Source of the DNA: Erythrobacter sp. JK5
Lineage (GTDB): Bacteria > Pseudomonadota > Alphaproteobacteria > Sphingomonadales > Sphingomonadaceae
Assembly (NCBI RefSeq): GCF_018205975.1
Contig: NZ_CP073577.1
Location: 2,418,001 to 2,482,000 of the forward strand
Direction of reading: 5' to 3'
Length of the DNA stretch: 64,000 nt
Shown one piece after another: positions 3,700-7,113 of the stretch. Within the stretch, counting starts at the first letter, position 1, and each line of letters opens with the position of its first letter. The position numbers and the translations under genes were made by a program. The notes beneath the pieces were generated by a model. The model was not told where the DNA came from and made no database searches. It saw only the letters and a list, made by a program, of their open reading frames with translations.

Positions 3700-4124
3700 C
3701 TACCGCGCCCGCTTCCACACTTGCGTCTGGCAGAATGGGCCGATGCAGCCCTTGACCTCGAGCGTGTTCGCGCCGGTCCGCCGCACCACCGAACGGTAGC
3801 TCTTGCCGCTCTTGGGATCGTAAATCCGCCCGCGCCACAACGCCGCTTCCTCGGTAAAGCCGAACAGCACCGGCAGACCGAGCAGCTTGCGCTGCTTGAG
3901 CCGGGGATCGGGGTTGTTGATATCGCGCTGGTCCGGGCCATCGGGGGCGGAACAAGGAACCGCGCGACCTTGCCGCACGTACTCGCTCCGCACCGACCGA
4001 TCTCGACCACCGCATCCCGATCCTGCGTCACCCAGCGCCCGGCGATCGAATCCGCCGCCACCGCAGGATAACCGTACGCGGCCGCCAGCGCAGCGAGAAG
4101 TGCAGCAAGTCGGCGCGCAGGCAT
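3700..4124 (-). CDS. DUF2147 family secreted protein, split by a one-base frameshift
   Basis: Small exported protein of unknown function. The first frame starts at 4124 with a signal peptide (MPARRLAALLAALAAAYG, cleavage near AVA-A) and the family opening GRWVTQDRDAVVEIGRC with two paired cysteines. The second frame carries the DUF2147 core (lLGLPVLFGF, WRGRIYDPKSGKSY, LEVKGCIGPFCQTQVW) and ends at 3700. The frames join at a run of five G (3943-3947; five C in the coding strand). One extra C restores LVPPPDGPDQRDINNPD and a 141-residue protein of normal family length. It follows the methyltransferase gene by 62 bases on the same strand and converges with the ABC importer. DUF2147 proteins are periplasmic or surface-linked; the function is not known. 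Confidence 0.82.
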
Positions 4125-4186: not shown

Positions 4187-6352
4187 TCAGTCGAAGCCGA
4201 CGCCCATCGGCCAGCGGCGTCCGCAAATACCCATGACCTTGAACAGCGCTCCCATTTCGCCATCGCTCACCAGCCGATCGTATTGCCGCTGCAGCGTCTT
4301 GGCCTGACCCGGCGACTTGCGCTGGAGCGCTTCGAGCCGCACGTCGATCCCCAGCTGGCGCAGCCAGTCGCCCTGCATCTGAAGCCCCATTATGTCGGCG
4401 CCGTTGTTCGCGGCGACTTCGTGCAGCATTTCGAAATCGACATGCGCGGTCATATCGGCCTCGCCTGGATGCGAGAGCGGGTCGACCTTCTTGTGATTCT
4501 TGAGCGCCTGCAGGGTCGATCCGGCGCGCAGTTCGGTCGGGCCGTAATCGATGATCAGCGCCGCCCCGCCCTGATTGACCAGCCGCTGCGCGATCTCGCC
4601 CATCAGCGTGGCCGCCGCCGGGCTGGTTTCGATCATCGATCCCTGCGCGGCGCTCTTCCAGCTGGACGGGACCACCGAATCCATCGGCTTGTCCCCGGCG
4701 ACGAAGACAAACCGATCATCTTCCAGCCCCACCATGCGCTCGTGCCACCCCTGCGCCGAGCGGACCAGCTGGTGCACCGGCAGCGCATCGAAGAATTCGT
4801 TGGCGACGATCAGCAGCGGGCGGTCTTCGGGCAGCGTTGAAAGATCGTTGTGGAACCGCACGGTCGGGAATTCCGTACGCTGGATCTGGCGCAGCGCGAT
4901 CGATCCTTCGACGAAGTGCAGGTGCGGATCGAATCCGTATTTTCCGGCGGCGCGCAGGATATCCTTGGTCAGCGTCCCGCGTCCGGGCCCGAGCTCGACG
5001 AAGTGGATGTTGTCGGACGAGCCCATCCTGACCCACAGGTCGGCGAACCACAGCCCGATCAGTTCGCCGAACATCTGACTGACTTCGGGAGCGGTGATGA
5101 AATCTCCCTCTTCGCCCAGCGGATCGCGGCTGGCGTAATAGCGCGCGTTGGATTCGCCCATGAACTGCGCAAGGCTGATCGGTCCGTTTTCGCGGATCAG
5201 GCGGCGGAAGCTCTTGCCGAGATCGAGCTTGGCGAGTTCGGCAGCCTCGGTTTCGGCCTTGGCCTTTGCCTCAGCCTCGGCCTCTGCCTCTTTCTTGGCT
5301 TTGGCTTCGGCAGCCGCTTTTTCCTTGGCTTCCTGCTTGACCTTCGCTTCAGCCTCTCGCTTCGCCCGCTCTTCGGCCTCGCGCTTGGCTTTTTCCTCGG
5401 CCTCTTTCTTCGCCTTGGCCTCGGCTTCCGCTTTTGCCTTCGCTTCGGCAGCGGCTTTCTTTTCCGCTTCCTTCCTGGCCTTGGCTTCTGCTTCGGCCTT
5501 TGCCTTTTCTTCGGCTTCCTTTTTCGCCTTGGCTTCAGCCTCAGCCCGAGCCTTCTCCTCGGCTTCTTTCTTCGCTTTCGCTGCTGCGGCTGCCTTGGCG
5601 GCCTCTGCCCTGGCTTCTTCTTCCGCCTTGCGCGTGGCCTCGGCTTCCCGCTTGGCTTTTTCCTCGGCCTCTTTCTTCGCCTTTGCCGCCGCTTCGGCCT
5701 TCGCCTTACTCTCGGCCTCTAGCTTCGCTTTCTGTTCGGCTTCTGCTTTGGCCTCCGCCTCCGCCTTGGCCTTCGCATCGGCTTCCTTCCGGGCCTTTTC
5801 TTCCGCTTCCTGCTTGGCTCTGGCTTCCGCTTCCTTGCGAGCCTTCTCCTCGACCTCTCGTCTCGCTTTGGCTTCCGCCTCGGCCCGGGCCTTCTCTTCG
5901 GCTTCCTTCTTTGCCTTGGCTTCCGCTGCAGCCTTCGCCCGCGCTTCCGCTTCGAGCTTGGCCTTGGCCTCGGCTTCGGCCTTCGCCTCGGCCTCCGCAG
6001 CGGCCTTGGCGCGCGCTTCCTTCTCTGCCCCGGCCTTGGCCTCGGCAGCCGCCTTCGCTTCAGCCTCTTTCCGGGCCTCGTCTTCCGCTTTCTTTCTGGC
6101 TTGCGCTTCGGCCGCTGCCTCCGTCGCTTGCGCTTCTTCGCGCGATCGGGCTTCCGCCTCGGCGAGGCTCAGGAGAAGTGTTTCGCTGCCGTCGGGCTCG
6201 ATCAGCCGCAGCGTGGGGCGCCAGAGGCGCGGGTCGTCGTCGAGGATCAGGCCGCCTGCGTCATGCTCCCCGCGCCCGTGCCAACCGGCTTGCGGGTCAC
6301 CGCGTAGAGCGTGACAATCAATCCAGTCAGTATCAGCGGTATCGTCAGCCAT
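4187..6352 (-). CDS. SAM-dependent methyltransferase (NDUFAF7/MidA family) with long Ala/Glu/Lys helical extension
   Basis: The C-terminal ~345 residues (from about 377, [21 protein letters not shown]) are a class I methyltransferase of the COG1565 family: [16 protein letters not shown], the SAM loop [17 protein letters not shown], and [13 protein letters not shown]. Mitochondrial NDUFAF7 dimethylates an arginine of complex I; the bacterial role is not settled. Ahead of it lie about 310 residues made almost only of A, E, K and R in an approximate 8-residue pattern ([16 protein letters not shown]), predicted to form a charged single alpha-helix or coiled coil. No ATG, GTG or TTG lies between the repeat and the enzyme, so the repeat must be translated with it. 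The first canonical start (ATG 6352) overlaps lgt by 106 bases; a CTG at 6250, overlapping the lgt stop as CTGA, is an attractive alternative. Family members are usually about half this length. Confidence 0.88.
5235..6170 (-). repeat. Low-complexity Ala/Glu/Lys-coding repeat within the methyltransferase gene
   Basis: Imperfect tandem units encoding K-A-x-x-E-A-E-x, roughly 24 bases each, with heavy use of GCC/GCT, GAG/GAA and AAG/AAA. Because both strands avoid stops, long open frames appear on the opposite strand; they are byproducts. Variation in synonymous codons between units argues for an old, selected repeat and not a recent slippage expansion. Confidence 0.85.
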
Positions 6353-7113
6353 TGCCCCATCGATAGCCCGGTTCGCACTGCAAAGTCAGCCAATTGTTCG
6401 TCGGGTTCCCGGAAGAATTCGTTAACAAAGCGCGCTGCACCCATGCCGAGCGTGAATATCCCGACCAGCAGGCCGCGACGATACCGGGCGCGGGTCGTCC
6501 AGAACAGCAACAGCAGGATCACCAGCAGCGCCAGCCCTTCGAGCCCGGCCTGATACAGCTGGCTCGGGTGCCGGACGACCTCTCCGCCGCCGGGAAACAC
6601 CATGCCCCACGACACGTCGGTCGTGCGTCCCCACAGCTCGCCGTTGTTGAAATTGGCCAGCCGCCCCAGCAGCATCCCCATCGGAACGCTGACCGCGATG
6701 TAATCGCACACCCGCAGGAAATCGAGCTTGTCGCGCCAGGTGACGTAGATGATCGCCAGCAGCACCCCGATAAGCCCGCCATGGAAGCTCATCCCGCCTT
6801 CCCACAGCTTGAGCACCTCGATCGGGTTGGCCCACATGTCGGGCTTGTAGAAAATCGAATAGCCGATCCGCCCGCCGAGGATCACGCCCAGGGTGCAATA
6901 GAAGAACAGGTCGTCTGCATGCCGCTGCGCCATCGGTGCGCCCGGCGCCTTGAGCATCTTCGAAGTGTGCCAGTAGGCGAAGAACACCCCGATCAGATAG
7001 GCCAGCGAATAAAACCGCAGTGTGAAGAATCCGAGGTCGATCCCCGGCCGCAGCCCAAGATCGGACCAGTAGATCGGGTCGGCGGCGCCGCTCGCAGCGA
7101 GTAGTGACAGCAC
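6247..7113 (-). CDS. lgt: Prolipoprotein diacylglyceryl transferase
   Basis: Inner-membrane enzyme that moves diacylglycerol from phosphatidylglycerol to the lipobox cysteine of prolipoproteins, the first step of lipoprotein maturation. The 288-residue protein has about seven membrane helices, the [10 protein letters not shown] segment, and the Lgt signature [14 protein letters not shown] with its conserved Asn/Gly/Glu residues. Length is normal. The stop codon at 6247-6249 is embedded in CCTGATCC, so a CTG start for the following methyltransferase would overlap by four bases. Several predicted lipoproteins in this window (PstS, alkaline phosphatase, small acidic lipoproteins) would be its clients. 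Confidence 0.97.

What the first reader, a model, noticed from the sequence alone, without database searches (positions are those of the whole stretch)
4187..6352. Methyltransferase of the NDUFAF7/MidA family fused to a ~310-residue charged helix repeat
The sequence shows an approximate 8-residue K-A-x-x-E-A-E-x pattern, repeated for about 310 residues and then running straight into the enzyme. There is no canonical start between repeat and enzyme, so it must be translated. At 0.15 nm per residue a single helix of this length would reach about 46 nm. Family members I know of lack it. It could be a spacer, tether or scaffold for a target such as a respiratory complex; that is inference.
Basis: partly seen in the sequence, partly recalled or inferred. 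Interest (0 to 1): 0.7.

Follow-up and report, generated by a model that had tools for sequence, protein, structure and literature searches.

The report
Methyltransferase on a long helical rod
In most examined species of a marine bacterial genus, a widespread enzyme related to a respiratory-complex assembly factor begins inside the preceding gene and carries a long rod of variable length with a conserved tip, which looks like a tether or spacer whose purpose is unknown.

Summary
Window 4187-6352(-) is one 721-residue frame: an N-terminal segment, 309 residues of charged helix repeat, then a MidA/NDUFAF7-like methyltransferase. It is not a one-off: 87 of 106 examined loci of this genus (relatives named Erythrobacter) carry an extension here; 0 of 54 loci of other genera do. 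Added findings: (1) The start codon lies inside lgt. The ancestral start at the lgt stop is dead (0 of 76 ATG; 29 of 76 not even NTG), while an ATG inside lgt is kept in 76 of 76, and some lgt wobble bases there are frozen as a second frame would require. (2) A conserved tip around LRLI[DE]P precedes the rod. (3) In four relatives the helix is replaced by a proline-rich rod between the same kind of tip and the same enzyme, as in TolA/TonB spacers. The extension is under purifying selection (dN/dS 0.08, 0.11, 0.25 in three gap-free pairs). Best reading: a semi-rigid spacer holding a docking tip tens of nanometres from the enzyme. Anatomy and translation are well supported by sequence; helix shape is predicted; anchor, substrate and purpose are inference.

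The parts
4187..6352 (-). midA-like gene, 721 codons plus stop, from the ATG inside lgt
   Evidence: ATG kept in 76 of 76 extension-bearing loci with lgt
6247..6352 (-). overlap with lgt; encodes the N-terminal peptide MADxTADxDWIDCxxLR in a second frame
   Evidence: lgt columns 312, 323, 324 show 0 wobble changes in 76 genomes; upstream columns average 15.4; peptide conservation
6350..6352 (-). start codon ATG made by the wobble A of the lgt Gln codon CAA (GQW)
6248..6250 (-). former start site at the lgt stop (NTGA), here CTG
   Evidence: extension-bearing CTG45 CTA15 GTA10 TTA4 TTG2 of 76; rod-less ATG13 GTG2 TTA1 GTA1 of 17
6170..6223 (-). tip [18 protein letters not shown] (residues 44-61), predicted beta-hairpin
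   Evidence: strands 49-51 and 57-59 in both AlphaFold2 models, moderate confidence; codons vary synonymously
5237..6163 (-). charged helix rod, residues 64-372 (309 aa)
4187..5236 (-). MidA/NDUFAF7-like methyltransferase (residues 373-721; PF02636 at 4385-5062)
6247..7113 (-). lgt, prolipoprotein diacylglyceryl transferase, host of the relocated start codon

Best explanation
The gene encodes a MidA/NDUFAF7-type SAM-dependent methyltransferase carried at the end of a long semi-rigid rod. Translation starts at an ATG inside lgt, so the first ~35 residues are overprinted on lgt; then comes a short conserved hairpin-like tip, then the rod (a charged alpha-helix here, a proline-rich rod in four relatives), then the enzyme. 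Most likely the tip and the overprinted peptide dock on a partner and the rod holds the enzyme at tens of nanometres' reach from it, while the enzyme does its ordinary job, probably arginine methylation of NuoD during complex I assembly. Shown from sequence: anatomy, translation of the extension, start relocation, purifying selection, conserved tip, two rod types. Predicted only: the helix and hairpin. Inferred: that the rod is monomeric and extended in the cell, that the tip binds something, what it binds, and the substrate.
For: 87 of 106 examined genus loci carry the extension; 0 of 54 other-genera loci and 0 of 9 further loci picked from the class search. Start relocation. Tip: Lx[LI][ILV][DE]P in 72 of 76 loci (69 by regular expression plus L154, L169, L180 by eye), three with A or G for P, L138 diverged; a Trp within 8 residues before it in 56 of the 72 regular-expression hits; its conserved positions use up to six synonymous codons; L143 carries two tips. 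Rod: cores of 74 loci, 20703 residues, are 94% A/E/K/R/Q with 78 Pro (23 of them in L196) and 34 Gly, and a median i,i+4 ion-pair z of 12.5; the cores were bounded by an A/E/K/R/Q-rich window, which raises that share by construction, the z-score not. dN/dS 0.08, 0.11, 0.25 in the three gap-free equal-length pairs, dS 0.30-0.42. Rod types: (PE)n in L161, Pro-rich in L196, L197, L231, between the same kind of tip and the enzyme. Helix predicted from residue 63 to 375 with breaks. NuoD carries DPHVGLLHRGTEK, like the human Arg-85 peptide KCDPHIGLLHR (PMC3829151 passages).
Against: Extension length runs from 81 to 503 residues, so there is no fixed ruler length; L147 has only a 49-residue core. 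L159 and L164, which fall among the relatives of the proline-rich loci, lack it. AlphaFold2 confidence is below 50 in parts of the rod, with breaks at about 150-163 and 279-285. The ATG inside lgt has hardly better Shine-Dalgarno pairing than background (mean -2.7 vs -2.1 kcal/mol), whereas 37 of 75 loci have an SD-like stretch before the lgt stop, against 1 of 18 in the comparison set. The first test for dual coding was negative (P 0.27). The frozen lgt codon ATT is also what the rod-less congeners with Ile there use (7). No partner was found, and no second tip in the genome better than E 0.76.
Confidence: 0.5

Rival explanations
1. The extension is a tolerated low-complexity expansion: a slippage-prone GCN-GAR-AAR array fused to the enzyme, kept only because it folds harmlessly, with no spacer function.
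For: Tandem periods of 24/48/72/120 nt among others; extension length 81-503 aa; L159 and L164 lack it; proline-rich rods in four relatives also fit a permissive linker.
Against: Present in every examined member of the helix-rod clade (27 sampled rows); dN/dS well below 1, and three equal-length gap-free pairs at dS 0.3-0.4; array copies only 60-90% matched at DNA level while the protein pattern persists; conserved tip beyond the rod.
Confidence: 0.25
2. The rod binds nucleic acid or another polyelectrolyte and brings the methyltransferase to DNA or ribosomes, rather than spacing it from a docking site.
For: A single helix of CAF-1 binds DNA (PMC10335832, title and start of abstract in a listing); a 2025 paper reports DNA methylation by Wolbachia MidA and calls it preliminary (PMC12455994, passages).
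Against: The window's rod is neutral overall (85 K+R against 85 E+D) and is replaced by acidic (PE)n in L161.
Confidence: 0.08
3. The rod is an oligomerisation device (coiled coil) that clusters the enzyme.
For: Long predicted helix.
Against: 4 bulky hydrophobics in 309 residues; best 28-residue heptad a/d occupancy 0.125 against 0.8 for the GCN4 zipper on the same crude measure; proline-rich rods in relatives.
Confidence: 0.08
4. The rod region is not translated, or translation of the enzyme starts after it, and the sequence is an artefact of assembly or of an open frame in GC-rich DNA.
For: No clear Shine-Dalgarno at the ATG inside lgt; long spurious frames do occur at this place, e.g. 1399 codons in G126 where the lgt-enzyme distance is 8 nt.
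Against: Seen in 87 genomes; dN/dS; synonymous codon variation in tip and rod; start-codon relocation; 15 of 75 loci have no ATG/GTG/TTG after the lgt stop.
Confidence: 0.02

Closest known systems
MidA/NDUFAF7 (PF02636, COG1565/DUF185) methyltransferases
   Same: Catalytic domain and fold (1zkd TM 0.84, 5zu0 TM 0.76 by target length); the gene follows lgt here and in the rod-less relatives examined
   Different: The rod-less relatives start at or near the enzyme; this one has an overprinted N-terminus, a tip and a long rod
Stable single alpha-helix (SAH/CSAH) spacers, e.g. in myosin levers (PMC5378345, listing only)
   Same: Alternating opposite charges four residues apart, no hydrophobic stripe, few Pro/Gly
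   Different: Attached to a bacterial methyltransferase; a proline-rich rod stands in its place in four relatives
TolA/TonB domain II periplasmic spacers (PMC12204202, passages)
   Same: Length-variable spacer that is alpha-helical in some lineages and proline-rich in others
   Different: The end domains are unrelated by the family scans made; no signal-peptide or membrane predictor was run; weak TolA hits (36.4 bits vs cut-off 59.45) come from the repeat only

Membership tests
MidA/NDUFAF7 methyltransferase | PF02636 match over its curated cut-off | tested here: met
   194 bits vs 23.3
MidA/NDUFAF7 methyltransferase | Sequence and fold relation to solved members | tested here: met
   1zkd E 1.3e-71, 5ztz E 2.3e-53; Foldseek ranks 1-6
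MidA/NDUFAF7 methyltransferase | Glycine-rich SAM motif (assignment recalled) conserved | tested here: met
   ELGPGRGT, each position invariant or at least 90% in 36 sequences
MidA/NDUFAF7 methyltransferase | Methylates the NDUFS2/NuoD arginine | not testable with these tools
   only the substrate motif GLLHRG was found in the host NuoD
Single alpha-helix (SAH) | Opposite charges at i,i+4 | tested here: met
   127 opposite vs 9 like pairs
Single alpha-helix (SAH) | No hydrophobic heptad, few helix breakers | tested here: met
   4 bulky hydrophobics, 1 Gly, 0 Pro in 309
Single alpha-helix (SAH) | Positive by a dedicated SAH predictor | not tested
   none available; my own charge spectrum peaks at 2.7 residues, a harmonic of 8
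Single alpha-helix (SAH) | Monomeric extended helix in solution | not testable with these tools
   AlphaFold2 gives helix 63-375 with low-confidence breaks
TolA | NCBIfam tolA_full over cut-off | tested here: not met
   36.4 bits vs 59.45, repeat only; low-complexity hits to ClfA/ClfB models are far below theirs too
TolA | N-terminal transmembrane helix | not tested
   no predictor run; none evident by eye in residues 1-62

The most novel reading that the evidence does not exclude
A 'reach' enzyme: a complex I assembly methyltransferase converted into a tethered one. The gene first captured an upstream start inside lgt, making a conserved peptide by overprinting, then gained a conserved docking tip and a rod whose material (charged helix or polyproline) is interchangeable because only reach and stiffness are selected.
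Probability: 0.4. Interest if true: 0.75.

Novelty: new variant of a known kind. Interest (0 to 1): 0.6.

Why it matters
Long rods are known mostly from motors, scaffolds and envelope bridges (recalled). A small assembly enzyme that has kept a rod of about 7-65 nm (if helical) across most of a genus, with two chemically different rod types between the same kind of tip and the same enzyme, is a natural experiment on what spacers are selected for. It also gives a case of start-codon relocation into an upstream gene with signs of dual-coding constraint that can be read base by base, and points to an unknown partner of bacterial MidA, whose function in prokaryotes had been inferred only in silico according to PMC12455994 (passages).

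Tried and rejected
Rejected: coiled coil; TolA membership; a known domain in the N-terminus (Pfam at E<=10 on 9 N-termini gave no hit over its cut-off; a resemblance to translation factor IF3 that came to mind found no support there); start at the lgt stop or at a CTG in the tip (its Leu codons vary); a second copy of the tip in this genome (only a hit at E 0.76). Other KAEAE-type repeats in the own genome: none outside this gene at E<=0.001 with 137 residues of the repeat, 150 of 345 candidates scored.

Dual coding: mean pairwise wobble difference was not significant (P 0.27). The count of wobble changes on the tree, made after I had seen single columns, was: 3 of 13 overlap columns unchanged vs 2 of 135 upstream, P 0.005; 0 of 9 and 0 of 4 overlap columns in the 17 rod-less and 54 outgroup genomes. 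Another column choice gave 0 of 118 upstream.

Whether all extension-bearing genes are one clade: on 58 chosen rows (27 of 83 helix-rod loci, all 4 proline-rich, 19 rod-less, 8 others) the helix-rod set is one (SH-aLRT 100), but holding helix-rod plus proline-rich rows together without L159 and L164 is mildly rejected (AU p 0.029). One gain with two losses, two gains, or exchange of the locus between lineages are all open; the shared tip and the shared ATG favour one gain. Fewest changes by parsimony were 2 on the enzyme tree and 3.

Full report
What is there. On the minus strand, 4187-6352 is a single open frame of 721 codons. Residues 431-656 match PF02636; the enzyme part is related to 1zkd (DUF185), to the NDUFAF7 homologue 5ztz/5zu0 and to 4f3n/4g67. 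lgt lies at 6247-7113 and overlaps the frame by 106 nt. The repeat, residues 64-372, has charges of opposite sign four residues apart (autocorrelation -0.73 at lag 4, +0.57 at lag 8). Its codons are diverse (Ala GCC58 GCG38 GCA15 GCT13; Glu GAA47 GAG36; Lys AAG48 AAA17), so it is not a fresh DNA slippage product; TRF gives 19 rows with periods from 6 to 120 nt, 17 of them at most 80% matched.

Distribution. The genus search found PF02636 in 113 of 114 genomes. I fetched and parsed 106 of the 113 genus loci: 87 carry an extension, 19 do not. Two of the 87 (L201, L203) are cut by contig ends but show the repeat. One more genome, G066, lacks it; six (G041, G034, G090, G029, G088, G073) were not fetched. 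None of 54 loci of other genera with lgt has it (lgt-enzyme distance at most 56 nt), nor nine further loci chosen from a class-wide search because their frames were long or their matches began early (2-14 nt). In that class search 319 of 385 genomes matched; in the listed rows only this genome and a congener (G011) align through the repeat; one other early match (G850, from position 86) was not checked, and the list was truncated. The family-wide list (397 genomes) was also truncated, so rare occurrences elsewhere are not excluded.

Where translation starts. In rod-less congeners the gene can start at an ATG or GTG overlapping the lgt stop (ATG 13, GTG 2 of 17; other genera NTG in 52 of 54). 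In the 76 rod-bearing loci with lgt that codon is CTG 45, CTA 15, GTA 10, TTA 4, TTG 2: never ATG or GTG, and in 29 not a possible start. Instead an ATG inside lgt, made by the wobble base of the Gln codon in GQW, is present in 76 of 76; this needs CAA, although other Gln codons of lgt are mostly CAG (341 to 146 in 75 loci; at this column rod-less have 12 CAA of 17, outgroup 8 of 54). On the tree this CAA shows 0 changes, against 4-19 at ten other twofold columns, one of which also lies in the overlap. Two more lgt columns in the overlap are frozen, TTG 76/76 and ATT 76/76; their wobble bases begin the second-frame codons of Asp12 and Cys13, invariant in 36 and 41 aligned sequences. Overall 3 of 13 overlap columns are unchanged against 2 of 135 upstream (P 0.005); no overlap column is unchanged in the 17 rod-less or 54 outgroup genomes, though few columns qualify there (9 and 4). 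An earlier, cruder test was negative (P 0.27), and the later test was framed after seeing single columns. Rod-less congeners with Ile at that column also use ATT (7). The tip leucines downstream use six and five Leu codons, so the conserved thing there is the peptide. Against the ATG: no clear Shine-Dalgarno, and SD-like stretches before the lgt stop in 37 of 75, 12 of these followed by an NTA codon at the junction.

By eye, 9 of the 19 rod-less congeners also encode a peptide like the overprinted one (MAxxxxDxxWxDCxxLR), so the overprinting may be older than the rod.

Tip and rod. Between the lgt stop and the rod lies a motif best written (WRxx)LRLI[DE]P: Lx[LI][ILV][DE]P in 72 of 76, three with A or G for P, L138 diverged; a Trp stands within 8 residues before it in 56 of 72 regular-expression hits. 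Both AlphaFold2 models draw a small hairpin at 49-51/57-59 and a helix from 63 (block pLDDT 62-78 around the tip, 47-71). L143 has two tips. Rod cores, as bounded by an A/E/K/R/Q-rich window, run 49-430 residues, median 293, in 74 loci. Four loci break the helix rule: L161 has (PE)n with an assembly gap, L196, L197 and L231 have Pro-rich sequence; all keep a tip and the enzyme. L161 also keeps the ATG inside lgt.

Selection. Of 28 close pairs, 22 gave a finite dN/dS for the extension: 21 between 0.08 and 0.32 (0.32 is the proline-rich pair L196/L197) and one 0.71 (L147/L176, lengths 81 and 319, alignment doubtful); six were saturated. The enzyme gave 0.01-0.15. Alignment of repeats favours low dN, so the three gap-free, equal-length pairs (0.08, 0.11, 0.25) carry the weight.

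History. On enzyme plus lgt (overlap excluded) the rod-bearing loci other than L161, which branches just outside, fall in a clade of 78 (support 1.0) that also holds L159; that clade includes L201 and L203, and the first of these was still scored as rod-less there. On the enzyme alone all 87 fall in a clade of 89 with L159 and L164 (support 1.0). A mixture-model tree of 58 chosen rows makes the helix-rod set a clade (SH-aLRT 100) and puts the four proline-rich loci with L159 and L164 as its sister (80; 89 for the union).

Reading. TolA domain II is helical in some lineages and proline-rich in others while serving as a spacer (PMC12204202, passages). Two rod types between like ends here suggest that extension and stiffness, not sequence, are selected. 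Human NDUFAF7 methylates Arg-85 of NDUFS2 (PMC3829151, abstract and passages); the host NuoD keeps that motif, so the ordinary substrate is available. What the tip holds on to is unknown. A search for papers holding Erythrobacter, MidA and methyltransferase found none; that library lacks most subscription journals, and no other search for this exact architecture was made.

Noticed in passing
window 3700-4124 (-): Downstream gene (a DUF2147-like protein, name recalled) is split into two frames near a C-run; in 19 named relatives both pieces hit one and the same frame. Sequencing error or real frameshift.
   Followed up: partly
L161 (G015): Same kind of tip and enzyme but a (PE)n rod with an internal acidic segment and a 10-N assembly gap.
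   Followed up: yes
L143 (G080): Tip duplicated ([14 protein letters not shown] and RLRLIEADGTVTEV) before the rod.
   Followed up: partly
lgt alignment column 316 (overlap): Ile is encoded by ATA in 66 of 76 rod-bearing genomes, a codon rare in GC-rich genomes (recalled); its wobble A gives Thr5 of the second frame.
   Followed up: partly
rod-bearing loci, just before the lgt stop: SD-like purine stretches in 37 of 75 although in 12 of them no NTG follows at the junction; unexplained.
   Followed up: partly
lgt alignment column 298: A second Gln codon with unusual CAA bias (66 to 8), upstream of the relocated start.
   Followed up: no
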